From: Seiridium cupressi
Taxonomy: Eukaryota > Ascomycota > Sordariomycetes > Amphisphaeriales > Sporocadaceae
Length of the DNA: 64,000 bases
Assembly: GCA_036674765.1 (NCBI GenBank)
Contig: JARVKI010000102.1
Span: forward strand, 83,808-147,807
Direction of reading: 5' to 3'
Positions 1-48,044 of the stretch are shown piece by piece. Position 1 is the first letter of the stretch; each line of letters opens with the position of its first letter. The notes below the pieces were generated by a model that was not told where the DNA came from, ran no database searches, and worked only from the letters and a program-made list of their open reading frames with translations. The position numbers and the translations under genes are program-made.

Positions 1-2
1 GC

Positions 3-538
3 ATATTCGTATGCGGTCACGCCGGCCTTCTACAAGGCAAGACTGTGTGTGGGCCGCGGCTCATGCAGAATGAGATTCGATCCAAGTTCGGAAAGGATAT
101 CGTGCAAAAGGGCGCCGAACTGCGATGGGTTCAAGATGGTAACTTCTGGAGCAGCGGTCAGTACATTAACTCTGAACCATTATTTACCTGCTTTCTTCCC
201 CTCCTCGTTTGGGACAATCTCCTTGACACTCCTTCTCTTGCCATTGCTTTGCCTTCCTCGCTATAGTATTTCCCAGGATATGATCGTGCTGTCTTTCTGG
301 TCCGGCTTTCGCTAACTATGATATAAAAATAGGTGGTGTGACGAACGGTAATGATCTCGTAGCTGCGTATGCTCGTCACAAGTCGGAATTCTTTCCCAGG
401 CCCCTAGTCGAAACTGCGCTTGACATGACAGACACGGGTGACCGCGCTCAGGTATATGGCAAGAGCCAATCGACTGCCATCTTGGGACTTGCCATGAATG
501 CATTCCGGGCCTGGCTATCGGGCTTTTGGCGCAGGTGA
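3..538 (+). CDS. DJ-1/PfpI (ThiJ) family protein, 3' part only
   Basis: The reading frame enters from the left edge, so the start is missing. Exon 1 runs to 156, an intron lies at 157-332 (donor GTCAGT, branch GCTAAC at 311-316, acceptor AG at 331-332), and exon 2 runs 333-538 to TGA. The joined product keeps the GHAGLLQGK turn, where the family has G-x-G-L-L-x-G-K, and a W-S-S-G-G-V-T-N-G-N-D-L block that matches the TSSGVTAGIDLA-like helix of class I amidotransferase-like DJ-1/PfpI proteins. The nucleophile elbow Cys would lie upstream of the window edge, so enzymatic competence cannot be judged. Many fungal members are annotated as putative isonitrile hydratase-like or stress proteins. The family call is reasonable; the function is unknown. 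Confidence 0.7.
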
Positions 539-1894
539 GTCTCCATCATAGGCCACGCGGCACATGGAATGGCGGTTGGGTTATTCCCAGGCTGGCGTTT
601 CTTGGAGCTGCAGCTATTCATGGTCGTGTAGATAGTACCGGTACCGCGTCCAGTTGAGAATCGATCCCCCTTCAACACATAGAACTACGTCGATTTTGTC
701 ACTGTATTGCACAATCCGACTTGGGAAAGTGAAAAGCCTTTGCCAAAGTGTGGCATCTGCAAAGATCACTCGGCGGTGCTGCGACCAGGTCGGGCGACTG
801 CGGGTGCGCATGCGAGCAGCAAGATCTCACTTTAATACTTTGAGCTCGCAACTACCAGCCGGATAGACCGCTTACCACCACGTCATATGCACCTAAATCA
901 TCCAATTGAATCGAGTCAAAAGACCCATTGAAGCAATTTTACCAGAGCACCATGCCCAAAAGAGATGAAAAACATTCGAAAATGCCGGATGCTACGGAAC
1001 GCCCAGATCCCAAAATGTAATCTGATAGGGCTATTGCTGCCAAGAAACTCGGTCGGCAATGGCCCCATTTAAATCCCGAGGTGGTGCTTCTGAGAGGCGG
1101 TGGAACACGATACCATTGGACAAAGATCCACAAGGGGGGGGAGATAAAGAAAGGTAAGTTATGCTTACTTGTATGATGACTTGTAAAGTGCCCAGAGAGC
1201 TGCACATTGCATTCAGCAGTATCGTGCCGTAGGTCGACTGCTGGGTATATAAAAAGCGGTTCACAATTAAAGACGGAGCTGCCTAACCTAGAGTTGGTCA
1301 TCCACGGCCAATGGTTATCATGCCATCACAGATGAATGTGCCGGGCAGATTCTGTGACGGTATATATTCCAGCGCGAGACAAGGTATATTCTGCTTTCTC
1401 TCCGCTCCAGGGCGATCGGTCATCTCGTGTAGACACTAACAATGCTACCTATCAACTAACCTACATGAATGCACAATTGTACTGTATGGTTCTACAGTAT
1501 GATAATGGTGATTGTGCTTTTCGAGCCTTGCGGTCTAGTGCTGTTGCTATGGCGCAGATAAGAGCATCTGCAGCACTAGCGTCCCTTATCGAAAGGCGGT
1601 GGGGTGGTTTTTGCGGCGAGTGTGCAGCAGGCAGGCTGCAAGCTTCGAACTTTTTTTTTCCTGCCTCGACCGCCCGAGTCGTACGTACTAGACCCTTCGA
1701 AAAAATCCGACTTTTTTCCAAGTTGCTCAATACCCTTCACCATTACTCTTTCTCATCTCGGAAAGGTTCAGTCGTTTGGTCAATTGCCCATCAATTATAG
1801 TTCCGTCTTGTGTATATCTTCGCACCATTGGTTTCCTGGATCACTGCAGTCTCATTCACAAGACTATCTCCAGTTCGTCCATCTTATCTTCACA
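539..1894. other. Intergenic, leader of FPR4
   Basis: No gene is supported. Several open frames up to about 150 codons exist, but they overlap on both strands and show no recognisable domain. The last 200 bases before 1895 are pyrimidine-rich (TTCTTTTT-type tracts near 1650-1760), as is usual for a fungal 5' leader and core promoter. Confidence 0.55.
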
Positions 1895-3576
1895 ATGGCG
1901 ACCGTTGCCCTGTACGGCCTTGAGGTCCCCCCCGTGGGCGTCTTGGTTCCTGCTCAGGCTGAGGACAGCATTCCCAATGCCTCCGTAAGTCTATTCCACA
2001 GGTTTTCTCTCGGCGCATGCCGCACATGAGCATATTTCGCAAATGCAGCAGGTTTCATTCGAAGGCTGCGCGTGAGCAATAGCTGGCACCCATCCACTAA
2101 CACAATGGGCAGTACCGCATCACCATGGCTGCTCTTGATCCCACCGAGGCCCCTGAAGCTGACGAGGAGGGCAACATTCCTGACAAGCCCCGTGCCACTC
2201 TGAAGCTTGTGCGTCAGCGGTATCCCGACCTTGATGACGAGCTCGATGATGAGTATCTCGAGGCCCTGATGGGTGGCTCCGACGACGAGGAGGATGACAG
2301 CGATGAGGATGAGGCCAATGGCGGTCCCAGCGACCCCTCCAAGTCCAAGAGGGCCAAGGCTGAGGCTGCTTTGCAGAAGCTCATCGAGGCCGCTCAAGAA
2401 GAGGGAGAGGAGGACTCAGATGACGAGATGGCCGACGCTGACGGCAAGTCCAATGGTGTCAAGAAGGCCAAGAAGGGCAAGGAGCCTGCCACTTCGAGCG
2501 ATGACGACGACGACGAGAGCGTCGACTCTGATGCCATTGACTTGGAGGAATTCGTCATTTGCACTCTCGACACCGAGCGCGTGAGTCCATTATGCCCATA
2601 CCAATCTTCGACGTGCTAATTTGTACTCTAGAACTACCAACAACCTATTGATATCACAATCGGCCCCGATGAGAAGGTCTTCTTCCGCGTCACAGGCACC
2701 CATGCCATCCACCTGACGGGCAACTACGTGATTGACGGTGACGAGGACTCCGAGGATGACTCTGAGGATGAAGACTATGATGACTTCCCCAACCAGCTCG
2801 AGGAGATGTACGGTGAGGGCTCTGATGAGTCGGAAGAGGATGACCTCGACGGCCTCGAGGATCCCCGCATCACCGAGGTCGAGTCGGAAGAAGAAGCTCC
2901 CAAGTTGATCAAGGCCAAGAAGGGAAAGAACAAACGCCCAGCTGAGGAGGAGGGCGAGAGCCTTGACGCCCTGATTGCCAAGGCCGACGCCGCCGAGGAC
3001 AAGATCAGCAAGAAGCAGGAGAAGAAGCTCAAGAACAACAAGGGCGAGGCCGTGGAGGTTGAGAAGGAGAAGGCCAAGGCCGATGCGAAGGAGAGCCCCA
3101 AGGACGCCAAAAAGGTTCAGTTCGCCAAGAACCTCGAGCAAGGACCGACAGGACCAGCAGCTAACGCTGAGAAGGGAGCAACCCCAGGTGTCAAGGTCGT
3201 CAAGGGTGTCACCATCGATGACCGTAAAATCGGCAAGGGTCGTCCGGCCAAGAACGGCAACAAGGTCGGCGTCCGTTACATTGGCAAGCTTCAAGATGGC
3301 AAGGTTTTCGATTGTAAGTGTTGATCCCTCTTCCCCGACTACACTGTCTACTGATGCTGACCTGGCGCAGCCAACAAGAAAGGCAAGCCTTTCACATTTG
3401 CCATCGGAAAAGGTGAGGTCATCCAGGGATGGGAAATCGGGCTGGAGGGCATGCAGGTTGGCGGCGAGCGCCGCATCACCATCCCGCCCAAGCTGGCCTA
3501 CGGCAGCAGGTCTCAGCCTGGCATCCCCGGAAACTCCACCTTGGTGTTCGACATCAAGCTGCTGGAGATCAAGTAA
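1895..3576 (+). CDS. FPR4: Nucleolar FKBP-type peptidyl-prolyl isomerase (Fpr3/Fpr4 type)
   Basis: Four exons: 1895-1984, 2113-2580, 2632-3313 and 3371-3576, giving 481 aa. Residues 1-75 form the nucleoplasmin-like N-terminal domain (start [13 protein letters not shown], then a [10 protein letters not shown] strand). Long Asp/Glu blocks follow and alternate with Lys-rich segments (about 76-370), which is typical of nucleolar histone-binding FKBPs. The C-terminal 105 residues are a complete FKBP domain: [31 protein letters not shown] and a final [11 protein letters not shown] strand. Known family members catalyse cis-trans prolyl isomerisation, including on histone H3 tails, and act as histone chaperones at rDNA. 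The first exon ends exactly on a codon after residue 30. The call is firm; Fpr3 versus Fpr4 is not separable, as filamentous fungi usually carry one such gene. Confidence 0.95.
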
Positions 3577-5069
3577 ACTGGTTTCCTGACGGCTTGCATG
3601 AGAAGCTGTGTATTTCCATCTAATACCCTCATTTCCTTTTGCAGATAACTCTCTGGACTGTACTATGGAAGAGCTATCTATGATTCTTTGCGCTGTGAGG
3701 TCTCCGACCTGCGCGAGTCTGCGATGATCCGGTCTTCTCCCAGACATGGGAAGCAGATGCTGCTGTTACAAGGGATGACGAGGTCTAGCATTGCATCACA
3801 GGCGTAATAAAATTTGATTTCTCGGGGTGCTGGATTTCTTCTTAATGCGATCATTCAGATCGCTTCGCTCCTGCTTAGGTAGCAGATAGATATACTCGGA
3901 TTAATACAGACATGTGTCAATCATATCTCATACCTGCACCGCCATTTTGACCAAGTTGACGGCGATATGACGACGATAGAGAGATCTCACTCTTCCTGCT
4001 CTTTGCAATCAGGCACACAGTTGCCCTAAATCAAAGGCGCCGTTCTGATCACATCTGATACGACTTTTCCTGAAGGGACGGCCCATCGCTCTTGGCGCCC
4101 TCTAAATCTTGTGGTCAATGTTACCCGTGTAGCTCCGGGTCTGAAGTAATGCAAAGCCAAGCAAGTACAATACGGCAGACGTTGCATTATCATGCGTTAT
4201 GTCATGCACACAAATTCCAGGGTAACAGTTGCCCACATGAGTAGATCGCAATGATTGGAGAAGGAGAATGCCGGAGACAGGATGTGCTGCAGCGATCAAG
4301 TGTCGGGACTTGCCCGTGTATTCGAGTTTTGTTTGTGCGTTGACGCAGGAATGGACACTCAATACACAGCACCAAATTGCCAAGCCATGACAGACCCGGG
4401 GAAGACTGCCCCTTTTCACATGTTTCCCTGTCCTGCCCTGTCAGGAACACGATGCCTGCGACTGCCATTTCGTTGCGCTTCCACATCGCCAGTCTATGGT
4501 CTCGCAGTGCTCCTGCACTGGGTATATTTTCTCTGAAGAACAGGACGGACACCTACGGTGCCAATAAAGGCAGTAGCGTCTGCCCCAGGCGTCTTGAACT
4601 GGACCGCTTTCTTCGGGTTAAGGTCTGGACGTGGCTTCCTGGAGAGTAAACAGTAGGTCACAATGCCAGACACAATACGTCACGTCAAGTAACTACCACC
4701 ATCAAACTCGCAAAGCTCCCATCTTTCTCCATCTTCTTGTCATCTTCATCAATCACGGTTCCGCTCGATACCCAGTATTGCCATTCCGTCTTCTTCTATA
4801 CTTTGGACGTCATCAACTACAGTCCCGCTGGATTTCCCAGTCTTATCTTCACATCTCCTTCTGTTTCTCCTTTCTTGTTTTTCTTGGGAGGGGCGGTCTC
4901 GCTGCAGTGTCTTCACAATAATGACCGATCCGCTCATGAGATTTGCACTCCAGCTCATGATCTTATGGCTCGTTCTCCAGATTTTCTTGTTTTTCCTGAT
5001 GCTGGAAGACCGCAGCAAGTGGAGAGAAATGCACTTGCGACAGGCCAAGAAATCACCCTCGCCGTAACT
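3577..5069. other. Intergenic, kinase promoter and leader
   Basis: No supported gene. The segment 4680-4910 is C/T-rich and reads like a long 5' leader. The kinase frame is already open from 4737, and a separate short upstream frame sits at 4921-5067. Confidence 0.5.
4921..5067 (+). other. Candidate upstream ORF ending 2 nt before the kinase start
   Basis: ATG at 4921, TAA at 5065-5067, 48 codons. The chosen kinase ATG is at 5070, so only two bases separate the stop from the start. The predicted peptide has a strongly hydrophobic middle (LQLMILWLVLQIFLFFLM). It overlaps, in a different frame, an upstream extension of the kinase frame, so it is either a uORF in the leader or a chance frame in an N-terminal extension. 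No homology is recognised. Confidence 0.3.
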
Positions 5070-6783
5070 ATGGCACCAACAGTCAAGACCGCCGAGAGAG
5101 CGGCTGCTGCTAAGATATACTTCGAGACACATTATCACGACATCCTCACAAAGCCCGACCCGAGATCCCTGCGTCTGCAATACCTCGAGGCTCAGCTGCA
5201 CCACAGCGAGCTCTCGAGCGAGCAAAAACACGCCAGACGTGACATGTTCTACCAGACTGAATCCGATAATCTTCGTGAAACGCGAGTCCTCAAGTCAAGA
5301 AGTTTCTGCCCAACTTTGATGGGTTTACCAGGCAAGTTGACGGACAAGTATGAAGTTCTCAAGATCCTAGGCAAGGGTAGCTTCGGAGTTGTTCGACTGG
5401 TGCGGCAGAGAGCACCGAATGATCCAGATGCCCGCTCGACACCACCTGCTGTCTATGCTATGAAGGTAATTCGCAAGTCTGCAATGCTACGTACAAGCCA
5501 AGAGGGCCATCTTAGAGCAGAGCGAGACTTTCTGGTCTCATCTAATGGATCCAACTGGTGAGGCCCTATACACCAGCCGGCGGAGGTCGCAGAGCTAACG
5601 TCGACGTGGCAGGATTGTCCCATTGATTGCAAGCTTCCAAGATCCTGCCAACTTGTATTTGGTTATGGAGTACATGCCGGGCGGCGATTTCCTCGGCCTT
5701 CTCATACGCGAGAACATCCTCAGCGAGCCCGTGGCCAGATTTTACATCGCGGAGATGATATTGTGCATAGAGGAGGCTCATTCTCTCGGATGCATTCACA
5801 GAGACATCAAACCTGACAACTTCCTCGTGTCCCCTTCCGGACATCTCAAGATTTCAGACTTCGGACTGGCATACGATGGTCATTGGTCGCACGATACCAG
5901 TTACTACCACACTCATCGGTACAGTCTGGTTCATAAACTCGGTCTTTCCATCGAGGGTAATGCCCAAGATCAATCAGAGGGCTTTGGTGGCACTATGAGA
6001 TGGGCTCGCAATGTGGCAGAGGGCATGAGGAAGCACGAGCGCGAAGAAGGTCAAAGCAGCTCAGTCAACCACCGCCACGAACCTCTCCTCAACTGGCGCA
6101 ACCGGTGCGGAAATCGTACTGCCGCTCGATCGGTTGTTGGCACGAGCCAGTACATGGCCCCTGAAGTGATCCGCGAAGGTGACTACGATGCGAGATGCGA
6201 TTAGTGGAGCCTCGGCATCATCTTGTACGAGTGTCTCTATGGCCACACGCCCTTCCTCTCCGAGGCAGGTGGTCGCCAGGAGACCAAGCGCAATATTGTT
6301 AACCATCAACAGACCTTTGCCTTCCCGTACCGCCCCCTGATATCCCACCGCTGCATGGAGCTACTGTCTCAGCTAATCTGCGAAAAGGAGCTGCGACTGT
6401 GTTCTAAGCGCTATCAGGATTTCAGGGGCTATGCTGTATATCCACAAGACGCCGAAGACATCAAGGCACACAAATGGTTCCGGGACATACCCTGGGACCG
6501 GCTTCATCTCATCTCACCCCCATTTGTACCACACATCTCCAGCTTGGCCGATACACACTACTTTGACGAAGAGGAACCTATCTCGGATTGGTCCGAGTCG
6601 CAAGCTAGTAATGAAACAACAGAGACTGTGCGGAAGAATGGAAACAAGGAGCGAAAGAGGCCTCGAGATCGGCTTCTGAGAGATCGCCAGACAAAAGAAA
6701 CCGTGATGGAAATTCGGAAGCGGAGCGCATTCTTGGGATACACGTGGACTAGGGTGGCCGGCCGAGAGTTTGCGGCGAACTGA
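5070..6783 (+). CDS. PUK1: NDR-like AGC protein kinase with in-frame UAG in the kinase domain (PUK1/stk-21 type)
   Basis: Exons 5070-5557 and 5613-6783 (intron 5558-5612, branch GCTAAC); 552 codons if codon 360 is read through. Residues 5-75 form an NDR-type N-terminal regulatory helix. The kinase core has the glycine loop GKGSFG 101-106, Lys132, Glu151, HRDIKPDN 225-232, DFG 245-247, an NDR-type insert, GTSQYMAPE at 339-347, then YDARCD. Codon 360 (6202-6204) is TAG where NDR kinases have Trp in D-W-W-S-L-G. The frame continues undamaged with WSLGIILYECLYG, the C-lobe, the AGC tail and an AFLGYTWTR hydrophobic motif. In Fusarium PUK1 and its Neurospora counterpart, UAG at this site is edited to UGG in sexual tissue (recalled knowledge). 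That role is inferred here. The start at 5070 is the likeliest because MAPTVK leads into the conserved helix; in-frame ATGs at 4737 and 4965 are alternatives. Without editing the product is a truncated 359-aa kinase. Confidence 0.8.
6187..6219 (+). promoter_or_regulatory. Possible hairpin presenting the UAG adenosine (candidate A-to-I editing site)
   Basis: GATGCGAG at 6187-6194 can pair with CTCGGCATC at 6211-6219, giving 8 bp with one bulged G. The 16-nt loop 6195-6210 holds the TAG codon at 6202-6204, with its A at 6203 near the middle. Fungal A-to-I sites are known to prefer U at -1 and a hairpin loop; both are present here. The pairing was found by eye, with no folding energy computed. 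Confidence 0.45.
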
Positions 6784-6955
6784 AAAGAGAGTGATGCACC
6801 AATGTTTTTCTTCTTGTTTTCATTACATGTGCGCGGGCAAAAAAACAGTCGTTAGATTTCATAAGGGCCATCACCGTCCTTGTAGTCTCTAGTAAGACCT
6901 TTTTCCCCCTTGAACAATTTCTCACCACTTCTCTCGTTTTACATTGAAGCCTTAC

Positions 6956-8753
6956 TTAACCTCCTCTCTCCTCTCGCCACTTCTTCTCTCTGCTACCCTC
7001 CCTACTACTCCCGTGTGTCTCATCCTCGAAGCCTGGCCCACCTGCTCCAGTTGCTGTAGCTTTTGCATTCATGACTTCCCACTCAAATTCCTTGAGCGCT
7101 CTGATCTCGCTACCGACAAACAGCAATGCGATCAGCCCGTCTACGGTCCCAGCGACAAGGCCCAGGCTCGATAAGAGCATGAGTATAAATGACACATAGT
7201 GCGGCGTCCACCAGACCCCGATGTAGCATATAAGGGTCACGATGACCCACGTGCCGAAGTGAATACCGCGCCACCGTCGCTGAAAGCGCTCACGGGCCAT
7301 GTAGGCGTGGATTTGGGTCAGGATCTCATCGTATGTGCTCGAGGGGAGATAAGAGACAGGCTGTGCGGCGGTCTGAAGCTGCGACGCAAACGACGAGCTC
7401 GATGGCGCGTTGGGGTCACGCGGCTGAGTTGGGGGCAGGGGCAGATGCGTTTCTGATGTCGTGGGCGACTGTAGGTAGACACCATTCTCGAGATCAGCGT
7501 CTGGGATCTCGGTCCTGCGGGTTTCCGCGAGGGAGGCAGCAGCCGTAGGATGGCGGATGGAACTGCGGCTACGGTTATGTGATCTGCTGCGATGGTACTC
7601 GTTTGCTGAGGCAGAAGGCGGTGTTGCGTTGACGCGGTGCAGAACCAGGGTGGCCTCGACGGAGAAGTGGTCCGAGAGGCTGCAGCCGAGCGCCGGGTGC
7701 CTACCCATCATGCCGACTCGAACATCATGGACCACCCAGCCCCAGCCGGCACTCTCGCTGCCAGAGGAGGCGAAAATGTAGTCAAGCCGCTTCCCCTTAG
7801 GATCAAGCGTATCGGGGGCGATCTCAGGCCAACTATCCTCGCGGCCGGGCCCAAGTAACTTCTGCTGCGATTTGGGCCACCTCCAGGTGTTATATACGGA
7901 ATTGCTCGTGGTCCCATTTTCGTCAATGTTGAACTGTGCGTTTGGAATAGGCCGCCGCCTGGCTCGTTCGAGGTCGTCCTCCGCCGAGCCTAGCGAAGAG
8001 TCCGGGTGTAGCACACGCCATACGTCACGAACAGGAGCGTGAGAGGAGATGATGCGATGCATGAGAGACAGGGGGACATCGTTGAAGTCGCCGAGAGCGA
8101 GCACAAGATGACCGCGGGCTGCAGCGCCACGGAGGAGCTTTGCCAGTTCCCAGGCCTGAGAAAGCCGATGTGCCGTGTACGAACAGTTGGTTCCATGCTC
8201 ATACCTGGCGTGGGTCTGGGGGAAACAGTATGTCAGCACAATGCAGAGGCACAAGGTTCACCTTCTTTGGCTGTTGGTGTCAGCTACTTACGTGTGTATT
8301 GAACACTTCGGCCACATCTCTAAGGCCCCTTCCGTACCGTATCTTGGCATATGCGACGCCCTTCCCGACAAACCAATCCCCACGAAAGAAAGCAGTTGGA
8401 CGGCCGTTGAGAGGGTACTGGTACATGGAGCTTTCTTCTATTGGCCATTTGGACAGAATTGCCAGGCCACCACCAAACGCCCCGCTGTGGTAGAACTTGC
8501 CGTACGGCAGTATGAAGCGGGTGGCCCGCCGTATGGAGCGGTAGTCCTCCTGTGTCCAGCATTCCTGCAAAGCGACGATATGAGGAGTGGGTGTCGTAGA
8601 AGCAATCGTCCGGCCTATCTCCTGGAGTCTGGTAGCGCGTTGCGCGGACAGGTGAAGGAGGCCCCAGCAGTTCAAGGTCAATATGTTCAGCTCGGTGAGC
8701 TCTAGAGGAAGAGCCTCCGTGGAGCTTGCAGGGGAGGCACGTGAGACGCGCAT
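6956..8753 (-). CDS. ISC1: Inositol phosphosphingolipid phospholipase C (neutral sphingomyelinase family)
   Basis: Minus strand, exons 8753-8292 and 8215-6956 (76-nt intron, donor GTAAGT), 573 aa. The ATG at 8753 leads within 25 residues into the catalytic core. The Mg-dependent endonuclease/exonuclease/phosphatase fold is visible: LTLNCWGL with Asn28, LQEC with Glu64, NTH then GDFND with Asp197 and Asn199, LDYIFA with Asp299, and SDH at 335-337 with the catalytic His337. Residues 345-445 are a low-complexity Ser/Arg/Pro linker. Two hydrophobic segments at about 472-490 and 493-522 are the paired C-terminal membrane helices typical of Isc1. The family hydrolyses inositol phosphosphingolipids to ceramide at ER and mitochondrial membranes. 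It is convergent with the kinase gene, with only 172 bp between the stops. Confidence 0.93.
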
Positions 8754-12257: not shown

Positions 12258-15200
12258 CTAGATGGTCTCCCAGCCACCGTTATTGATATCAGCTTCTAGT
12301 TTTCGACTGATAAAACTGGGAATGCCATGCGAGAGCCAAATGTTCCGAAGGGCATCATAGCGCTTCTGGTTCAGGTAAAGCAAACGCCCGTGGCGCAGAC
12401 CGACGTCCACCTCCCCGTAGCGGTCGATGTATGGCGCGTGGCTGAAAGAGCCGCTGACACGGTGCAAGTAGAAGACGGAGCACTTGCGGATGTTGATGAA
12501 CAGGCCAATGTTCCGTTGGCACCTATTCCCGCAGATTAGCAACGCTTTGCATCGGATGGCGAGGACGGCTCGGAAAACTTACTTGAAGAGCATGTGCTGG
12601 CTCGCCCCACCAATCTTCATGGTCGGTTTGTCGTCCCGGCCGTCTTCCTTGTAGTCCATGAGGCAACATATAGTCTGGCCGCAGAAGATGTCGCCGCAAA
12701 AGAGGCAGACTATCGGGTCAGCAAGATCCTTGCCCGTGCTTGGGCACCGGCGCTGGGCACACTGCTCGATGAGGGTGTCGTAGTTCTTGGGCAGCCCGAC
12801 CAGCTCGAATATGCCAGGATGGCTCAGCTGCGCCGACTTGGGAAGAACGTGCGGGCCTTCCCTCCTGGTTGGAGAAGCGGGTGGTGGATGATACAGCTGG
12901 TGGCGAATCCAGCCGTGGACGACAGCTTCGATGCGCGAAGGCCAGCCGTAGTTGGGTCCGTACGAGGTCAGCGCTGCGCACATCTCGTCGAAAGTCGGAA
13001 CCCGCAGAGCCGCTGTCAGCCGGGACAGCTCGTCCTCTTCGGGCGCTGCAGGCACGTAGCTGTTGAAGTCGACGCCGTAATGAACGTGCAAGAGGATGGC
13101 GCTCTTGCGCAAGAAGACGAGAGCGTACTTTTTTACGAATGCGTAGAAGTCTTGAAGGCCATTCATGCAAGGTTGCTCAAAACCCAGGTTCAGCAAATCC
13201 TCCGGAAGCTCATTGATTTCCTCCCTGTACTTGTGGCCAGCCAAAGTGACGGCATTACAAAACGTGGCGAAGTTGGCCAGGGCGGCGTCTTCGGGATCTC
13301 GCTTCACCATGTGCTCCAACCACTTCCCTATCGGCATGTTGCGAGAAACGTGATAAACCGTCTTGACAATCTCGGCAAGATAATATATTCTAATCAAGTT
13401 GTTGATGTCCATGTAGTGCGTCATACCGATGCTGAAAACACTCTCACACATGAGAATGAATGGATCCTGGCTCAATATGGGCGAAAAGTCGTCCACCGCT
13501 GAGCAGCCCTTGCTTATGTCGCCGGTAGAGAAATCCGCGATGAAGAGTTGGAAGAACTGGCGTTTAACATCTCGTTGGTATTCATTGCTGATGCGGCTTT
13601 CGCCGCCGTATCGCAGGCCACCAATCGCTATATACGACGCGACCGTTTCCGATAGAATCCGGAGCTGGATCAGCGTCTGCTCCGGGACCTTTTCGATGAG
13701 CGTCATCCCGTACTGCGCCTCAACACCTCTCTGTGTGATCTCAGTTGCCGAGATGGAGAAGCCCACGGCCTGCGCCAAGGCTCTGTTGCCTCCGAGATCC
13801 TCGGTCTTTATCTCAGGGTCTAGCCTATTTAGCAATTTGTTGCTTAGCAGCGTCTCTCGCAGCCGGTTATAAGCTCGCTTCAAGACCTTGTCTTGCGGCG
13901 TCTCCGGGCTTCTCGATCGGACGCTGGAATCTGGGGTGGCTACTGCTGAGAAAGAGTCGCTGAAAGGGGTACCCATGCCCGTAGATTGCGAAGCAATCGC
14001 TTCCCACGAAGCCTCTGCGCCGCCCTGCTGAGAGGGAATATCGTTGAGAGTTTCGGGCATTTTCGCTCGTATATACTCCGTGAAAGCAAGTTGTGCGGCG
14101 TCGTGGAAGTCTCCAAGGTACACGTGTTTTGGCGCGTCCAGGAATGAGGTCAAATCCGCGGGGTTCTGGAGGATACCGGGATAAGACTCCTCCTTACCGT
14201 CCCAAGTGATGGGTAGAAATGCGTTGCCGAGGGCCTTGCAGAGTGGGCATACGAACTCCTTGCGCTCCAAAGATTCCGGATGGTGGCGAGCGATCTGGTG
14301 AACGTGTCGCCGCGAGGTTGCCTCAATGTATGTTTCGAAGCAACTGTAGTGCATTATGTGACCGCATGACACGGCCACAGGGCCTTGTCGGCACATTTTT
14401 GCAGGGAACCCTTTGCCAATACGCTGCTTCTCCGCGCTGAACACTTCTCCGGCGGCGTTGACCTTCTCGACTCTTGTACGGTTCTCGTGAGCTAGACCGA
14501 AAGGTCGGATAGGCTCGGCTGACCGGTCGAGATTGACAGGAGTGTTGGCTGCTTCGCGCACGAAATCTGGATCTTGAAAATCTGTCTGGCGGAGTACATG
14601 GCTTTCGAGGAACAACCCAAACGTTCCATACAAACGACCGTCGTCGGCTTCTTCTTGGCAGAGGATGCAAGTTCCCCTGGGATACTTCCAAAAATTCTTC
14701 TGTGCCTCCAGTGGTGGCGCCTCCTCAACGTCCTCGAGGTCTTCTTCGCCCCAGTCAATATCGCCTTGCATCTCCAAGAAGCTCTTCTGTTGTTGCTGGA
14801 ATTGCGCCATAACCTTGGCTTGACGGTCGAGGGCCGCCTTCTTCTTCCGTTCGCGCTCCTCGTCGGCATTTTGAGTACTGGCCGGAGAGGCAGTATCTAA
14901 TCTATCGATTGGTATACCCAAGCGCAGGTAGGCAGAATCAAAGTGCGTTGGCATCTTCTGTCTCATTCTCTTCAAAATCAAAGTGATCTTGGGATGGCAT
15001 GCCTTCAACTCTTCTTTTGTGGATATCAACTCGAGAAGGGATACAATAGTCTTCGCAGAAGGTGTGTCTTGTAGGAAATTGCTGCGGCCATGTGTGTTTA
15101 GGGCAATGTACACAAAGGAACTCTCTTCCGGACTCTTTTCACTGGTCTTATCCTCGGCAATCGCGATTAGTACCAAGTGCAGCACCACTTGTAGGAATGC

Positions 15201-18200
15201 TTCCACACGGGTAAAGGGGACCTCCGGGGTCAGCTTGGTTGCCACCAAGGGGTAGAGCAAGCAGTAGTAGATGATCTGTGCAAACATGCCGGTACTGGTG
15301 AAGTCACCTATTCCGACAAAGGCTCCTGATTGTATGGGCTTTAACTTTGGCTCATACACGACTTCTTCAAAGGGCTGCCCGGTTTTCTTAGCCATGAGCT
15401 TGCGATAGGACGCTTCTGACTCTTCCCTGTGGTTCTTGTTGTAATGCGCTATATAGGGGTCAATGTCTTCGATGAATTCAGGTTTGAGTTCAAAGGTGCC
15501 CACGTCCGAGACCCCGTCAGGGCCCTTGTAAGTAGACACCTCATCAAGTACTTGCTGGAAGTCCTCTTGCTCATGGAATCTGTCCGGGAGCTTGCTGCAG
15601 ATCTCGTTGAATGAGAGCGGCCGGAAACAGAGAACGTGAGTCACGTCGCGCCGCATAGCCATGAGATGGGTCTCGTGCTTGTCCCGAGTAGGAATAAGCG
15701 AAGTCCTGTCACTCAAAAGGACGATCAGGAGGTGTATCATGTCCTCAATGACATCGAGATGCTGACTCTCATCTTGACCTTCAGTCGTTTGCTCGAAGAA
15801 GCCCTTGACCCATTTCTCCATCCCGAATCGGTCCACAATCGAAACAAGGACACGGCTTGGGTCGCAGACAACCATTGCAGTCTGCAACAAGAAGATGTCT
15901 CGATGATGTGTATGGTTGCGATGGAGTTGGTTCCTGTACGTGATTGCTTGATGCCGAAGACTGATGCCGTTGCGAACCCACATGCTTGCCTTGATCTGTG
16001 CAAGCCAGGCGCAGACTCGTAAAGGGTAGTCGAAAGCAGCCATCAGGTAATCCTGGGGCGCATAATCGCGTTTGGGCATAGCCTTGCGTCCCATGGACTT
16101 GGGTTTCATCTTCAATTCTTGAGACGTGAAGCTTAGGATGGATGTTAGTTGCTGGGGAGACATGTGCTTCCCACACTCGATAAGCCACGACAGCGTGTAA
16201 TGGAGGGCGTGGTGAAAGCTAATCGGCTGTTCTTCGACAACGAACTTGACGACATCAAACTTGACGGATTCGCCAGCGAACTCAAAATCACTAAGTTGTT
16301 TGAAGCGAATTTCATCCTTGATCTCCGCCTGGATGAATCTGGCACGCTCCGCCCCGATAGAGTTAACAATGACATTCTTAGCGGTCAGTCTTATAGCTTT
16401 CGAGATGTATTGCAGGTCGTCCTCGGGAAGGTTGCGGAAGGAGTCGGCAAGTAGCCTGCAGAGCTGGTTGATCTCACGTGTCATCAACGAAGCACCAATC
16501 CAGCTATCAGTCTCGTATTCAACATGCTCACCGACCGCCCTAGTGTTGGGGCATATTCCTTGGTGAAGCTTAACCAGATCGAGGAACTGCAGGAGATATC
16601 TCTCTTCTGTCCTCATTCGCTCTTGGACATGTGGCGAGCCGAACAAATATTTGATGTCCACGTAGAAGTGGTACATTCGTCGATTGGTGACGGAACCTGT
16701 ATCAAAGCCGAGAACTGCACTGGACGAGACCTCCCATGGATGTCCCACTTGTCTAGTCGTGAGGAAAGTGTATAGGATAGCTAGGAGATTGGTCAAAAAG
16801 TTGCCACGCTCCACGACCTCGGCTGTAATAGAAGGTGTTGTAAGCATTTGAAGAGATATATTGATGATGGAGTGATCGGGCTCGCGGTCTCCAATCAGAT
16901 AGAGCTGCGCGAGCGTCGTGTAAAGTGCGGCAAACCGGAGACCGAGTATCCGTTTGAAGGCGGGAATGGTAACAACCGTGGAAATGTATAGGGAGCGTAG
17001 ATCTTGGCGAACTTTTTTCCACATTCTCAGGTCGAATAAGATCAGCCAGTCAAGACGCACCCGCTCGAAGACATCCTCGAAGGTGCGTTCCGTCGCAGGT
17101 TCTAGATATGCTGCGGGCGCTTCGACCCAGTACTTCCCTGGGCGCGGGGGGTCTGAAGTATCCCCTTTATTCTGACCAGGCGTCTTGGGCACCTCCAAGT
17201 TGACCTTCGCGTATACCGTTGGTGCTATTAGCGGCTCAGCTGTATCCGAATCAGATGGTGTCAGTTCCCGGTCTCGTGTCGTGCGTCTTGGCACGGGGGG
17301 CGGAGGCGGAGGGGGCGGCGGATATCCTGCCATCGTGGCCTCTTCTTCCTCAAGCGCGTCTCCGGTGACGTCGGGATTTCGCCAATCGGACATGTTCACA
17401 TCGCCAGGGGGTCCCGCATCAATCATCATTACATCGCCATCGAGATCGTCATCATCGTCGTCGTCGTCGTCGTCATTATCATTATCTTCGTCGTCACTCC
17501 CAGGCGTTTGATTTCCATCGTCATCATCGTCCGAGTTGTCTAACATGTCAGTCAGGGTCGCCGTGGTCATCTGAGCTCCCGCAGCGTTCATCCGTGCGAG
17601 AATACGCGCGCGTCTCATAAAGTAGCGTGCGGTTTCGTTCTGCTCGTGCATCTGCTCGATCATATCCTCGTCCTCTATCCCCGGAGGATTGCTAGCATGG
17701 GCAGCAGGACTGCCTTCCCTCCAAGACTTTAAAAGTTCTTCGCAAACGATCTGCCTGAGAACGCTGCCATCAGTTCCCACGAAGCAACCGGCGATGTCGT
17801 TCAACCAACTAATCATGGTCCCGCACATCTGCTCTCGAAATGTGTCGCGCGATGATCGTATAGTGACAGTGACCTTGATTTGCTCCAGTACCTTGGCTAC
17901 GCGGAGGAGGTGGTCGATATCGACGTCGTACATGAGGATACTGCGGCCGATGCTATCTGTCTCTAGAGCCCTCTTATAACCTTCTGGCATGGTGGTCCTA
18001 CAAGCCCTTGCAACCTGCGACTGGACTTCCTCGACAGTATGCTTCTCATCATTCCAGAGCAGAACTGCCCATTCGCCAGGTGGCTCCAGGTCGCCGCCGC
18101 AGTATACGGAGTTGAGGCGCGACGATTTCTCATCCTGCTCGATAGACTCTCTAGTCTTAGGTTGCCTCAACTGCTCTGGGGCGCAGGAGATGACGTCGCA

Positions 18201-18782
18201 TATGAAGTCCATGACTCGGGCTACAGTCATTCGGATGTTGTTCGCCAGATCAGGGGCCAGACCTGCTGCCTCTTTGCCTTTGCCCTTGGACCGATCCCCA
18301 TGAAGTTCGGAATGTATGGTGCAGTAGACGGGCCGTTTCCATGCTTCCGGGTCACCACAGTCACAGCAGCCGCTATTCCCAGGAGAAATAGTAATCTTGA
18401 CCATGTGGCCCTCGTGATCGGTCGCATCGAAGCATTTGCTGCAAAGAACGCAGGTTTCGTCGGCGCTGCATGTACGGCACCCGTAGGAGGCCTCGCCGGC
18501 TCGGAATATGTGGCCACAAGCCTTTCCTCTTGCCGCTTCTGTGTATTCTGCGCCCTCCACAGCACCCTGAGCTTCTCTGAGTTTGAGTGTCGTCTGGGGG
18601 GTGATCTTGCCCTCGGGGAAGAACATGCGCATGTATTCTGGCCGCCCCCCGGCCATCGACCAGAACAGATTGTACAGGAGATCGCGAGAAGCCGCATCGC
18701 TGTACCGGTATCCGTGTCGTCTCGGAAGCTCTATGAGGTGCTGGCAGAGCTGCAGCTCCTGTGTCGACAAAGTCGGCTCCAT
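12258..18782 (-). CDS. UBR1: E3 ubiquitin ligase N-recognin UBR1
   Basis: Minus strand, exons 18782-12583 and 12522-12258, 2154 aa; the intron splits a Lys codon 88 residues before the end. The UBR box at about 87-159 has the full Cys/His zinc set (ACGHIFRAGEASYGCRTC, CCDCGDPEAW) that binds basic type-1 N-degrons. A ClpS-like type-2 pocket region follows (about 230-330, WAVLLWNDEKHTVEEV). Residues near 430-460 are poly-Asp and those near 490 are poly-Pro. A split RING-H2 spans about 1372-1515 (CILCQEE, CGHIMHYSCFE, CPLCKA). The C-terminal UBLC domain includes the last exon, ending in YLNQKRYD and SRKLEADINNGGWETI. The family ubiquitylates N-end-rule and misfolded cytosolic proteins with Rad6/Ubc2. 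Length and domain order match fungal UBR1. Confidence 0.97.
17290..17535. repeat. In-frame simple repeats in UBR1 (poly-Pro and poly-Asp coding)
   Basis: On the plus strand, GGCGGA/GGGGGC units near 17300-17320 encode a proline run and (CGT/TCG)n plus (TCATTA)n units at about 17445-17535 encode an aspartate-rich run of UBR1. These are trinucleotide tracts prone to length change that keep the frame. Confidence 0.7.
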
Positions 18783-19735
18783 GTTCAAGGCCTAGGATGG
18801 TTCATCATACAACAAGGCGCACTGGAATCGAGCTGCGGCTGTATTGTCGTCAACAAGAGGCCGCGTCGGTCGAAATTTCCGGGTCGATAGGCGTTCTTCT
18901 AAATCTAGTTTGTATGGCAAAGTCAAGATGTAAAGGTGAAATGTCGTGACTAGACGGCTAAGGTAGATGGATAGATGGATAGATGGATGTCTTCGTTGAC
19001 AGCTGATGGTGGGGTTCTGACGACACGGAAGCTAACCACGACCTGTTGCGTGGCGAGACGTGAACAGACCACAGTCTGAGCAAAGAGGAAGGAATTACTT
19101 ATGGGAAGAGGATGGCAACATGGACGTTGGTAGATATTCACCAAGGGTTATTGGAAATGGCCCGTCACCAATCCTAGGAAAGGCCAGGGCTGCCTTGTGG
19201 AGGGGCAATGTGCCAGCGGCGACTTCTGCGTCGTGGAGCTCAACTTTTCAGCAAGAGCTGCGAGAACGCGAAGAAACATCAGATATGAAATGCGTTCCGG
19301 GGCTGAAGCTCTCTCGGGTTACAAGCCAAGTCTGACTCAAGTGCACTCTTGTCATTACTTGCACCTTGGAGAGAGACTAACTACAGGCAAGTTCGCTGAG
19401 GCCTGATCAGCCGAGGCAGCAACGCAGCCACGCATTACATCACAACCTAGAACAAGCGTACCGACTCTCTAGGCCGTACACGGTATTGTGATCTGAGGCG
19501 CTCATTGCTAGATGAGCTACTAATAGCAATATCGACCGTCTAGAGAGGTCGACTTTAAACCCCCAGGAAACCACACGTAGATACGGCGTGCCGCAGGTAT
19601 CGAAAGCCAGGTCGCACGGAGTCATTGCGTGTTTAATGAAATGTATCTGGACCATCTATAATGTACAGAAGTACAGGAGCAGCTCGAGTCTTCATCTTGT
19701 CGCGCGTAATTCGCTACTAATCCACGACCGACCGC
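18783..19735. other. Intergenic, UBR1 upstream and QCR9 3' side
   Basis: No gene supported. A short GATA/GATG tandem (about 18966-18990) lies in the UBR1 leader region. The remainder has only short random frames. Confidence 0.5.
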
Positions 19736-36046: not shown

Positions 36047-36558
36047 CTTGCTGAAGCAGTCGCAGATAGTGGTGTTTTGAATATGGGCTGACGAAACATG
36101 GATGTTGGGGATGGAAGTTTGCGGCAGGCAGGTCTTCAGCCTTGCCCTTTAAGCTCTAGAGCTATTTGCCAGGCGAACGCCTCTAAGCTGTACGGCAGGC
36201 GGTACCTAGTTACAGGCCGCAGCGTCCCGTGGGGCAGTTTTGAGTGCTGACAAGCAAGTCACGGGATGACGTGAAGAAGACAACCGCGTCTGGCCCCACG
36301 TCAGCGCGTATCCAATGGATCACTTCTAAATGCTCATTACCGCGACCAAGATCAGCGAGTGGCAGGTTGCAATGATTGTCTGATCCTTTTGCTCTGCTCA
36401 AGAAGTACAGTTTGTACTTTGAAAAGCCTGCATTGCTTGATCGATGCCGTCCTAGTGTTTGCCGACAGCGCCGTGATAGCTGTTGTCGACAGGAATAGTG
36501 ACCATCTTTCTTCTTGCTCCTGAGATTTAAGTTGAACATCCGAGGTGGTCCTTCCAAG
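36047..36558. other. Divergent promoter RED / REV1
   Basis: 512 bp between divergent starts; no motif recognised with confidence. Confidence 0.45.
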
Positions 36559-39500
36559 ATGGGTAGCCGCTTGGATAAAAATTCAAACGAGGTGCGGAAA
36601 CGCATTGAAAGTCATTCACTTACCGACGAAGGGGGTGATGAGTACGAACCAAGCGCTTTTGGTGGATTCTCGGACTACTTTCGCCGAAAGAAGATCAAAC
36701 TACAGAATCTGGACTCAGAGATTCGGGCCTCTACCAACAGACCGCCGATTTTCAAAGGTGTTGTGGCCCATGTCACAGGATATACTCAGCCGCCGCTCCA
36801 TGTCCTGCACAAAGAATTGGTAGAACATGGGGCTGGCTTCATTCAATACCTGGACTCAAAAACCATGGCCACTCACATCATCGCCTCGAGCCTTCCACCG
36901 AAGAAGATGGTTGAGTTTAAAAAGTACAGAATTGTCAAACCCACATGGGTCACAGACTCCATCGAAGCCGGAAAACTTCTGCCATGGTCGGATTACAGAG
37001 TCATTGAAGAAACTCCGAGGCAGAAGACCTTCCAGTTCGACCGAGGCTTGATAACTACGCAGTCAAATACCCAGCCATCGCCTCTGTCCAGATACCGGGA
37101 GCAGACCGAAAACAGTTTCTACACTCGCAAACTGCGAGGGCTTGCTGCGACCATCGATGGCAGGCAAGTCGAAGATCATTCACCAAGTACGATGAAAACA
37201 TCAAGTGTTCAAGGCAGTATAGATAGAAGTAGCCCGCTGGTCGATGAAGGACCAAGACAAGCTCTAGAGATTTCGGCTGATTCTGACATACCTATGGGTG
37301 TGGGGGAAATAGGCGCGATGGAAGACGCAGGTAAAGACCACGACCCAGATCGCAAGACCGAAATACCACGGCCGCCTTCTATTCTAAGACCGCCCGATAA
37401 GCCGCTTGAGGAAATGACCTCTGAGGAGCACAACGCCCTTTTGCTTCAGGATCCTCGTATGCGAAAATCCTCCACGGCCAATCCAGACTTCATTCAGCAG
37501 TATTACTTGGAAAGCCGCCTTCACCACCTGTCAGCTTGGAAAGCTGAGCTCAAGTCGAGAATGCAGAAGCTTGCAGCAGAGAAAGGGCCGCAAGCGAAAC
37601 CAGCGAGGAGGAAACCTGGCACAAGACGGTATGTCATGCATGTCGACTTTGACAGTTTCTTCTGCGCAGTGTCACTCAAAAGTGCACCGGAATATCTCAA
37701 CAAGCCCACAGTTGTAGCGCATGGTACCGGGACTGGATCCGAGATTGCAAGTTGCAACTACCCGGCTCGGGAATTCGGGGTAAAAAATGGCATGTGGATG
37801 AAAAGAGCTAAAGAGTTGTGTCCCGATCTCAAAATCCTGCCCTACAATTTCCTGGCTTACGAAGAAGCGAGTAAGCTGTTCTATGAGTCAATCCTAGAAG
37901 CCGGCGGCGTCGTACAGAGCGTCAGCATCGATGAGGCTCTAATCGACGTCAGTTCAGTCATATTTCAGTCTGTGGGATCGAAAGGAGATGGAGTCGATGA
38001 AGGCAGCATCTGGAGAGAGCAAGAAAGAGCCGATCATATTGCTCAGGACCTTCGAGATAAGATCAAAAGCAAGACTGGGTGCGCTGTGTCAGTCGGCATC
38101 GGAGGTAATATACTGCTAGCCAAAGTTGCTCTACGAAAAGCAAAGCCGGCCGGCCAGTTTCAGTTGAAGCCCGAAGCTGTGTTGCCATTCCTAGGAGAGT
38201 TGAAAGTGGATGATCTACCTGGAGTGGCGTACAGCATTGCTGGTAAACTCGAGGAGATTGGAATAAAATACGTAAAAGACATTCGAGAAGTGTCAAAAGA
38301 GCGTCTCACCACCACACTGGGGCCAAAGACAGGGGAAAAGCTTTGGGAATATGCTCGCGGTATCGATCGTGTTGAAGTTGGCGATCAGACTATACGCAAG
38401 TCAGTATCGGCCGAAGTGAACTGGGGCATACGGTTTATTAGCCAAGAAGAAGCGGAAGAGTTTGTTCTCAACCTAAGCAAGGAGTTAGAACGACGTCTAC
38501 TCAATGAACAGGTCAGGGGCAAGCAGCTGACCATGAAAATTATGAGGCGATCAATGGATGCGCCCTTGGATCCCCCCAAACATCTCGGTCATGGGAAATG
38601 CGACACCTTCAATAAAAGCATGATGTTTGGAGTGGCTACGAACGATCACCAGGTCATTGGCAAAGAGGCAATATCCATATTGCGATCCTATAAATTCAGT
38701 CCAGGCGATCTTCGAGGACTTGGTGTCCAACTCACAAAGCTGGAGCCCCTGAAACCTTCAACGGCTGGTAGACCCGAGAGCAGCCAGAGAAAGATCAACT
38801 TTAGTGCCTTCAAGACCCCAGGTTCGGCGGCGAAACCTACGAAAGACTCTATTCAGGAGATCGGCAGCCCGGATAAGCCGAGTCCAACGTCAAGCCGTGG
38901 TGAACCCAACGATCCCATCATTGACGGTCCACTGACTCCAAGGAAACCAAAGCTTGGTACCATCCACCCGGCACTCAGTATCTCGAAATCGCACCGACGC
39001 GATTTCAAAGCCAACACCCCCCTCAATATCGGTGGTACACAATTCATCCTACCAGCGAATCCCGATCCTGCCGTTCTCGCTGAGCTGCCCCCAGATATCC
39101 GGGACAAGCTGCTTGCCCAGATGAAGCCCCAGTCCGAGTCCAGGGGGCCCGAATCGGCTACGAGATCAAGAACTCAAAGCCCTGTAGTGGTAGATGAGAT
39201 CGCACCGGATATTGATACAGACGTCTTCAATGCCCTACCCGATGATGTGAAAGCCGAAGTGCTAGCCTCATATAAGCCAAGGGTTCCTCGGCGTCTCTTG
39301 CCTCAGTCTCCGAGCAAGAACCGCATCATCCAGCAAACTAAGAAAACCACGCCAACGAAGAAGCGCGTCCCAGGATCCCTGGCGAGGGCTCGTGAACGGC
39401 ATGCCGACGCACAAAATAAAGTAGTACAGACTAGCATAGCTTTCACCCGGGGCGAGGAAGGGATTGCTAGTGGTACGGACGAGCTTGACTACGAGTTCCT

Positions 39501-47753: not shown

Positions 47754-48044
47754 GTTGTGCTCAATTGCTGGTTGAGGATGGTGTGTTGGTCGGCGTTCCC
47801 AGAGTCGGACGTCAGAGCAGTCCCAAATCCTGGCTCAAGCTTGTGATGTACCTTTTTTGCGGCTAATCTCGGAGCCGGGATTTTTTTCTGGGGCAAGCTC
47901 TCCAGCAGCCTTGCCTTCGGCCTCGACAACCTTTTGGAATCGCAGAGCATCTCTCCTTTGAATTACTTGTCCGCAGCTTTGGTTTTCGTTGGCATTGATG
48001 TGATCCACCCTCTCGAATATGCGAGCTTAAAGTGCCCGCGCAGC
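47754..48044. promoter_or_regulatory. Bidirectional promoter between two mitochondrial genes (MIC27 / OCT1)
   Basis: 291 bp hold both 5' leaders. No specific factor site is claimed. Confidence 0.5.

What the first reader, a model, noticed from the sequence alone, without database searches (positions are those of the whole stretch)
6202..6204. In-frame UAG at a conserved Trp of an otherwise intact NDR-like kinase: probable A-to-I recoding site
Seen: codon 360 is TAG followed by TGG; NDR/AGC kinases have Trp-Trp there (D-W-W-S-L-G). The frame downstream is intact for 192 codons and keeps the C-lobe, AGC tail and the AFLGYTWTR hydrophobic motif, which would be unlikely in a decaying pseudogene. 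Known: Fusarium graminearum PUK1 and a Neurospora counterpart carry UAG at this place, edited to UGG in perithecia by the ADAR-independent A-to-I system of Sordariomycetes. Inferred: this is the same gene with one of the two Trp codons as UAG. Editing would switch a 359-residue truncated product to a 552-residue kinase only in sexual tissue.
Basis: partly seen in the sequence, partly recalled or inferred. Interest (0 to 1): 0.9.

Follow-up and report, generated by a model that had tools for sequence, protein, structure and literature searches.

The report
Conserved stop codon in fungal PUK1 kinase
A fungus related to the cypress-canker fungus Seiridium carries, inside the gene for a kinase known to be needed for spore formation in a related fungus, a stop codon at exactly the spot where related fungi are known to rewrite the stop in the messenger RNA during sex, so this is very probably one more case of a known kind of RNA recoding.

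Summary
A two-exon gene (5070-6783, +) has one in-frame TAG (codon 360, 6202-6204), then TGG, within 192 open codons that keep the kinase C-lobe and the AFLGYTWTR motif. It is the single-copy PUK1/stk-21-type kinase of a fungus close to Seiridium cardinale. In Neurospora crassa the same codon pair, UAGUGG, is edited to UGGUGG in perithecia (PMC4817773). Site and mechanism are known; this is a new member. In S. cardinale the annotated model resumes at the codon just after the TAG, and the downstream part is 191/192 identical. Of 125 named Sordariomycete homologues, 94 are broken at this Trp-Trp pair, 6 keep it, 25 are unresolved; the sampling favours truncated models. Editing itself was not seen: no RNA data were available. 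The most novel lead lies outside the window. Seven of 46 named Dothideomycete homologues have models that imply TAG at the same first Trp, one more ends there, and other lineages stop at other Trp codons. That suggests UAG/UGG recoding beyond Sordariomycetes, of which three paper searches showed no report.

The parts
5070..5557 (+). exon 1 of the PUK1-like kinase: Mob-binding-type N-terminal region (label recalled) and start of the N-lobe (start codon uncertain, alternative ATG at 4965)
5558..5612 (+). 55-nt intron, GTGAGG...CTAAC...CAG, splitting a Trp codon
   Evidence: sequence contiguous in homologous proteins
5613..6783 (+). exon 2: kinase domain, in-frame TAG, C-lobe, AGC tail, TGA
6202..6204 (+). 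TAG at the first Trp (W1) of the alpha-F Asp-Trp-Trp; predicted A-to-I recoding codon (A6203)
   Evidence: same codon as the edited N. crassa site
6205..6207 (+). TGG, second Trp (W2), the codon that is TAG in F. verticillioides
6205..6780 (+). downstream 192 codons, conserved
   Evidence: 191/192 identical to P0001; weak Pkinase match, profile positions 181-262, under the cut-off
6727..6753 (+). hydrophobic motif AFLGYTWTR of NDR/AGC kinases (family label recalled)
6136..6204 (+). 69-nt in-frame GT...TAG stretch matching what the annotated model of P0001 skips (probably a spurious intron)
6166..6204 (+). 39-nt in-frame GTG...TAG stretch matching the skip in other relatives (APE then WSxG)

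Best explanation
The codon is the conserved premature-stop-correction site of PUK1 (stk-21 in N. crassa). In sexual tissue the fungal Tad2-Tad3-Ame1 deaminase would convert A6203 to inosine, so that UAG reads as UGG (Trp) and a full-length NDR-type kinase is made. Without editing the protein ends inside alpha-F, with catalytic loop, DFG and APE but no C-lobe helices, AGC tail or hydrophobic motif, and is presumably inactive. Shown here: gene structure, kinship, a stop or model break at the same codon in other assemblies, conservation downstream. Inferred from papers: editing, its enzyme, its timing, and the role in ascospore formation.
For: Same codon pair UAGUGG is edited in N. crassa perithecia (PMC4817773 passages). 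Single copy; closest of the listed relatives are Seiridium cardinale P0001 and P0002. Identity to P0001: 328/337 upstream, 191/192 downstream; to P0166, P0185, P0222 and P0201 75-79% upstream and 74-80% downstream. Of 125 named Sordariomycete homologues 94 are broken at W1W2: 21 resume exactly at W2 (implies TAG at W1), 22 resume right after W2 by pattern (for P0202 and P0224 the join is ambiguous), 44 skip further, 5 end before W1, 2 end after W1. FKBP neighbour shared with P0132. -1 and -2 are U; A6203 is unpaired with p 0.99-1.0 at flanks of 15-30.
Against: No RNA reads from this fungus. Its species and sexual stage are not established; the MAT-alpha search found nothing and its control did not ring either. 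A6203 is in a hairpin loop only in short contexts (p 0.98-0.99 at flanks 15-20, 0.07 at 30). Among the 54 UA sites of the coding sequence 8 score at least as high at flank 20 and 35 at flank 30, so it does not stand out. Folds are not more stable than shuffles. The +2 base is U where G is enriched, -3 is A where G is enriched. Ame1 was not identified: three DUF726 genes exist, none showing the MV pair by simple spacing. P0002 is less conserved downstream (136/176) than upstream (302/352). The gene lacks the N-terminal 170-230 residues of its relatives. Six of 125 named Sordariomycetes, among them Pestalotiopsis fici, have plain Trp-Trp.
Confidence: 0.88

Rival explanations
1. A decaying pseudogene: the stop is a loss-of-function mutation and the downstream frame has not yet drifted.
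For: Relatives' N-terminal 170-230 residues and about 106 residues of the C-terminal region (P0166 739-844) find no match here; P0002 is less conserved downstream than upstream.
Against: 191/192 identity to P0001 downstream; stops or model breaks at the same pair in many genomes of the class; no other stop in the frame; HRD, DFG and APE motifs intact.
Confidence: 0.05
2. A real short intron ending with the TAG (39 or 69 nt, GT...TAG) removes the stop by splicing.
For: GT and AG are present and the stretch is in frame; annotation pipelines chose such joins in many relatives.
Against: It would remove part of the activation segment and the first alpha-F Trp; the equivalent annotated intron in F. 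graminearum was shown by cDNA not to be spliced (PMC4817773 and PMC7306014 passages); other relatives are modelled to end at the stop instead.
Confidence: 0.03
3. Translational readthrough or a UAG-suppressing tRNA inserts an amino acid at the codon.
For: Would also explain an intact downstream frame.
Against: The clean ends inside the kinase core that passed the filter fall before Trp codons, which fits UAG/UGG recoding and not general readthrough; the N. crassa and Fusarium orthologues are edited.
Confidence: 0.03
4. Base-call or assembly error.
For: Only one assembly of the locus was read as DNA.
Against: P0001, from another S. cardinale assembly, has a model that resumes at the codon after the stop, which needs xAG there.
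Confidence: 0.01

Closest known systems
Neurospora crassa stk-21 / NCU03242
   Same: Kinase gene with UAGUGG at the same codon pair, edited to UGGUGG in perithecia (PMC4817773, passages)
   Different: Editing seen there in RNA-seq, not here; the N. crassa sequence itself was not fetched or aligned
Fusarium graminearum PUK1 / FGRRES_01058
   Same: Kinase gene with premature UAG at the same Trp pair; deletion, edited and un-editable alleles were tested there (passages)
   Different: Two tandem UAGs there, one here
Fusarium verticillioides FVEG_01191
   Same: Edited UAG in the same Trp pair
   Different: The second Trp there, the first here
Seiridium cardinale P0001
   Same: 328/337 identical upstream, 191/192 downstream; its model implies the same TAG
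   Different: Val where the window has the 5070 Met; annotated with a probably spurious intron

Membership tests
PUK1/stk-21 orthologue | closest relatives are Sordariomycete PUK1-type NDR kinases, one copy | tested here: met
   that these homologues are the PUK1 group rests on the match of the Trp-pair stop to the papers, since NCU03242 and FGRRES_01058 were not aligned
PUK1/stk-21 orthologue | NDR/AGC architecture with HRD, DFG, APE and hydrophobic motif | tested here: met
   (CBK1 4lqp and STK38 6bxi best)
PUK1/stk-21 orthologue | conserved gene neighbourhood | tested here: met
   FKBP gene directly upstream here and fused by annotation in Paramyrothecium P0132; one comparison only
Premature-stop-correction (PSC) editing gene | in-frame UAG at a codon that is Trp in homologues, with conserved frame downstream | tested here: met
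Premature-stop-correction (PSC) editing gene | A-to-I change in sexual-stage mRNA | not testable with these tools
   no RNA data
Fungal A-to-I editing site | U at -1 | tested here: met
   sequence
Fungal A-to-I editing site | A in a predicted hairpin loop (30-nt flanks) | tested here: not met
   hairpin p 0.07 at flank 30, though 0.98-0.99 at flanks 15-20 and unpaired p 0.99 at 30; a preference, not a requirement: about 62% of F. graminearum sites meet it (PMC9600606 passages)
Fungal Tad2-Tad3-Ame1 editing | Ame1 (DUF726) with MV at positions 500-501 | tested here: inconclusive
   three DUF726 genes; no Ame1 sequence was at hand to align, and simple spacing showed no MV
Fungal Tad2-Tad3-Ame1 editing | Tad2 and Tad3 genes present | tested here: inconclusive
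   nine deaminase-family matches; which are Tad2 and Tad3 was not worked out

The most novel reading that the evidence does not exclude
UAG/UGG recoding of PUK1 is neither limited to the Trp-Trp pair nor to Sordariomycetes. Several other Trp codons of the gene have turned into stops in separate lineages, and Pleosporales (Dothideomycetes) also carry stops at W1 and at an alpha-E Trp, with conserved sequence downstream of W1. This would mean A-to-I mRNA editing acts in Dothideomycetes, although the Ame1-Tad3 interaction is described as arising in Sordariomycetes (PMC11087585), and PUK1 would be a marker gene for which fungi edit.
Probability: 0.5. Interest if true: 0.65.

Novelty: new member of a known kind. 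Interest (0 to 1): 0.42.

Why it matters
It adds a Seiridium-like species with the N. crassa-type UAGUGG to a published editing site. More usefully, the comparison shows that annotated fungal proteins carry the site as hidden evidence (false introns and truncations at Trp codons), which could be used to predict which fungi edit mRNA, including Dothideomycetes, for which three searches of an open-access library showed no report of A-to-I editing.

Tried and rejected
RNA hairpin: folds around 6203 are not more stable than shuffles (z +0.09 at 61 nt, -0.28 at 41 nt, +0.71 at 101 nt, +0.60 at 34 nt), and the hairpin-loop state depends on flank length; not used as support.

Ame1 test: the three DUF726 genes were read. 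The one on C14 has D and H at the published spacing (+58, +98) but Gly in place of the catalytic Ser; the C1 and C18 genes have +58 and +99 with Ser. MV was not found by spacing in any. Left open. Tad2/Tad3: nine deaminase-family matches, not sorted further.

MAT-alpha family search found nothing and no control rang; not evidence of absence. The 5.8S search found nothing, so the species was inferred from the kinase alone.

DNA methylase (RID-type) search for a second PSC gene: 6 matches, none with a stop inside; uninformative, because the RID orthologue was not identified.

Other kinases with TAG inside their Pfam match: five loci were read by eye and none had a TAG at a conserved Trp; at least six further matches with TAG were not read.

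I first took the ends ILDENVAK (18 proteins) as a counter-example, because Didymella P0225 has Phe next; close relatives P0093 and P0076 have Trp there, so they fit, but less cleanly.

An intron starting GTAAG in phase 2 would also give a clean ORF end after Lys, Leu, Gly or Trp codons that end in G. It cannot explain ends after Asp or Asn (RCD, LLN). The GTLK, LLG, KKNL, ENVAK and RCDW ends are therefore weaker one by one. Apiospora phragmitis P0056 keeps Trp after GTLK, unlike four other named Apiospora entries.

Full report
WHAT IS THERE. The window lies in an unnamed assembly of 45.4 Mb in 228 contigs (G000, contig C102). At 5070-6783 (+) is a gene with one 55-nt intron (5558-5612). Its 359 codons are followed by TAG at 6202-6204 and then by 192 codons, TGG first, up to TGA at 6781-6783. 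In that frame TAG is the only stop before the end. Pfam finds the protein kinase domain, profile positions 1-163, in the upstream piece, and positions 181-262 weakly (25.5 bits, under the cut-off of 31.7) in the downstream piece. The best solved relatives of the exon 2 piece upstream of the stop are CBK1 (4lqp) and STK38 (6bxi), of 667 matched sequences, 60 shown. The downstream part ends with the hydrophobic motif AFLGYTWTR and a short tail. The start codon is not certain: ATG 4965 is in frame, 35 codons earlier, and P0001 starts at the equivalent of 4965 and has Val where the window has the 5070 Met.

WHOSE GENE. The first protein search listed the best 120 of 2369 matches; the nearest are two entries named Seiridium cardinale, P0001 with 97% identity and P0002 with 86%. 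On a tree of the window and 335 homologues (P0119 was dropped as too short) the window sits with P0001 (distance 0.03) and P0002 (0.20), then P0166 Pestalotiopsis, P0185 Truncatella and P0222 Pestalotiopsis. Seiridium is in Sporocadaceae, Amphisphaeriales, Sordariomycetes; that Pestalotiopsis and Truncatella are in the same family is recalled. The species of the window is inferred from this gene only. The gene is single copy: the next match in the genome is a different kinase with 47% identity. That paralogue (L045; COT1/CBK1-like, label recalled) reads GAT TGG TGG at the same place. Directly upstream lies a nucleoplasmin-like/FKBP gene (1895-3576; Pfam NPL and FKBP_C on two pieces). In Paramyrothecium foliicola one annotated protein (P0132) fuses the same kind of FKBP to this kinase and ends at the same RCD, so the neighbourhood looks shared.

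WHAT IS KNOWN. Passages of Liu et al. 2016 (PMC4817773) report PUK1 of F. graminearum with UAG UAG in the kinase domain, both changed to UGG in 90% of perithecial transcripts. They report the N. crassa orthologue NCU03242 (stk-21) with UAGUGG edited to UGGUGG, F. verticillioides with UGGUAG edited at the second codon, and Magnaporthe oryzae and Claviceps paspali with genomic G. They also state that automated annotation had placed a false intron over the stops. Non-editable stk-21 and puk1 alleles fail to complement (PMC7306014 passages). The enzyme is Tad2-Tad3 with the activator Ame1, a DUF726 protein (PMC11087585 passages). The window has the N. crassa configuration. So the site, the gene and the proposed mechanism are published. 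One search for A-to-I RNA editing with Xylariales gave one paper, on Fusarium transcription factors (listing only).

CONSERVATION. Against P0001 the upstream part is identical at 328 of 337 aligned residues and the downstream part at 191 of 192. Against P0002 the figures are 302/352 and 136/176. Against P0166, P0185, P0222 and P0201 they are 281/358, 269/345, 273/351 and 249/334 upstream, and 151/189, 144/190, 122/164 and 145/184 downstream. Against Cryphonectria P0031 they are 196/287 and 117/182, and against Gaeumannomyces P0209 228/354 and 121/182. P0003 (277/359 upstream) ends at the stop, so its downstream alignment (8/26) is not meaningful (all). Downstream sequence is therefore held about as tightly as upstream, P0002 apart. 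dN/dS could not be computed because no DNA of relatives was at hand.

THE STOP IN RELATIVES. Three protein searches (best 120 each of 2369, 3443 and 2375 matches) gave 336 different proteins. I sorted them by regular expression at the pair W1W2: 165 intact; 19 end before W1; 6 end after W1; 28 skip and resume at W2; 22 skip and resume right after W2; 44 skip further; 4 have another residue at W1 (Tyr in 3, Arg in 1); 48 unresolved. One search lists the joins of the 28 and the 22: they hold as described, except that for P0202 and P0224 the join is ambiguous, and in P0149, P0152, P0179, P0181 and P0210 the skip starts far upstream. A model that resumes exactly at W2 needs a splice acceptor AG as the last two bases of W1, hence TAG there. 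By class (named organisms, class from my own knowledge of the genera): of 125 Sordariomycetes 6 are intact, 94 are broken at W1W2 in one of these ways and 25 are unresolved. In the Seiridium neighbourhood P. fici (P0166) is intact, while Truncatella (P0185) resumes at W2 and Pestalotiopsis sp. IQ-011 (P0222) skips, so both states seem to occur. These are not population frequencies: the first search admitted only proteins of 0.55-1.75 times 359 residues and the second used a profile of nine truncated models, both of which favour stop-bearing models.

BEYOND THE PAIR. One search looked for proteins whose C-terminal residues still match the family while relatives continue: 87 of 336. In 55 the residue that follows in the closest relatives is mainly Trp, in 1 (P0316) Phe with Trp also present, and in 31 not Trp. 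All 31 carry sequence from beyond the Trp pair (pattern test), and as far as I read them they end in intron read-through or ragged C-termini. The ends inside the core that passed the filter fall at six places, 55 proteins in all: before W1 19, before W2 6, GTLK|W 5, LL(N/G)|W 6, KKNL|W 1, ENVA(K/R)|W 18. Trp makes up 1.3% of all residues. An earlier, cruder count gave 32 Trp of 57, with 18 Phe, 3 Lys, 2 Ile, 1 Leu and 1 Thr; the 18 Phe are the ENVAK cases judged against Didymella. Proteins that end in the core but did not pass the filter exist, such as P0062, P0301 and P0319; they were not counted. The ends are fewer independent events than proteins (the 5 GTLK cases are four named Apiospora and one unnamed, the 18 ENVAK cases look like one Dothideomycete group). 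An in-phase GTAAG intron could mimic the ends after codons ending in G, but not the RCD and LLN ends.

OUTSIDE SORDARIOMYCETES. Of 46 named Dothideomycetes (class recalled) 32 are intact, 7 resume exactly at W2 (P0245 Neocucurbitaria, P0249 Lentithecium, P0253 Boeremia, P0269 Paraphaeosphaeria, P0280 Karstenula, P0290 Dendryphion, P0330 Bimuria), 1 ends before W1 (P0093 Neodidymelliopsis) and 6 are unresolved; of 74 unnamed sequences nearest to them 53 are intact, 3 end before W1, 3 have Tyr at W1 and 15 are unresolved. All 7 keep the C-terminal tail with the hydrophobic motif. P0253 lacks the GGDF stretch, so its model may skip a second region. Downstream identity of 5 of these 7 to 8 intact ones averages 0.728, against 0.737 among the 8 intact ones; upstream 0.775 against 0.764. 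says that the Ame1-Tad3 interaction originates in Sordariomycetes, with an independent origin suggested for Pezizomycetes. Searches for Dothideomycetes or Pleosporales with A-to-I editing showed no report; the one paper holding all three terms (PMC5496914, passages) names the class only for the spread of AMD1. The library holds open-licence papers only. Editing there is an inference from protein models, not a measurement.

LOCAL SIGNALS. A6203 has U at -1 and -2, A at -3, G at +1, U at +2, G at +3 and +4. U at -1 is the strong preference; U at -2 and A/G at +3/+4 agree with the weaker ones reported, A at -3 and U at +2 do not (preferences). The A is unpaired at flanks of 15-30 (p 0.99-1.0) and 40 (0.9), less at 50 (0.57). 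It is in a hairpin loop at 15-20 only. Of the 54 UA sites in the coding sequence, 8 reach its hairpin score at flank 20 and 35 at flank 30. This is compatible with editing but not evidence for it.

HOW IT MOST LIKELY WORKS. Shown: gene, kinship, stop, conservation. Inferred: in sexual tissue the A becomes I, a 552-residue (or 587) kinase is made, and ascospore formation depends on it, as in F. graminearum and N. crassa. The truncated form lacks everything after the alpha-F Asp and is probably inert.

VERDICT. Observation confirmed, interpretation supported but not demonstrated, novelty low for the window itself; the wider pattern of stops at Trp codons is the part worth following.

Noticed in passing
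window 4965-5070: The N-terminal extension (about 170-230 residues) of five Xylariomycetidae relatives has no tblastn match at E 0.01 in window 1-8000 upstream of 5055, and about 106 residues of the C-terminal region (P0166 739-844) are also missing; the S. cardinale entries P0001 and P0002 start at a similar place. A compact, lineage-specific form of the kinase.
   Followed up: partly
P0331, P0335, P0336 (Dothideomycete-like, unnamed): Tyr in place of W1 (RCDYWSVG), as might follow from Trp to TAG to TAY.
   Followed up: no
P0284, P0287, P0314 and 15 others ending in ENVA(K/R): Eighteen Ascochyta/Boeremia-type proteins end at an alpha-E position that is Trp in P0093 and P0076 but Phe in Didymella P0225; a possible Phe to Trp to TAG change.
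   Followed up: partly
G000 C1:127007-128047, C18:66981-68041, C14:402359-403445: Three DUF726 (Ame1-type) genes; the C14 copy has Gly in place of the catalytic Ser (GFGAG).
   Followed up: partly
window 6959-8257 (-): Downstream convergent gene with an Exo_endo_phos domain (31.5 bits).
   Followed up: no
window 36502-40092 (+); 12582-18791 (-); 47847-50447 (+): Rev1-type polymerase, UBR1-type N-recognin ligase and M3 peptidase genes; ordinary housekeeping neighbours.
   Followed up: no
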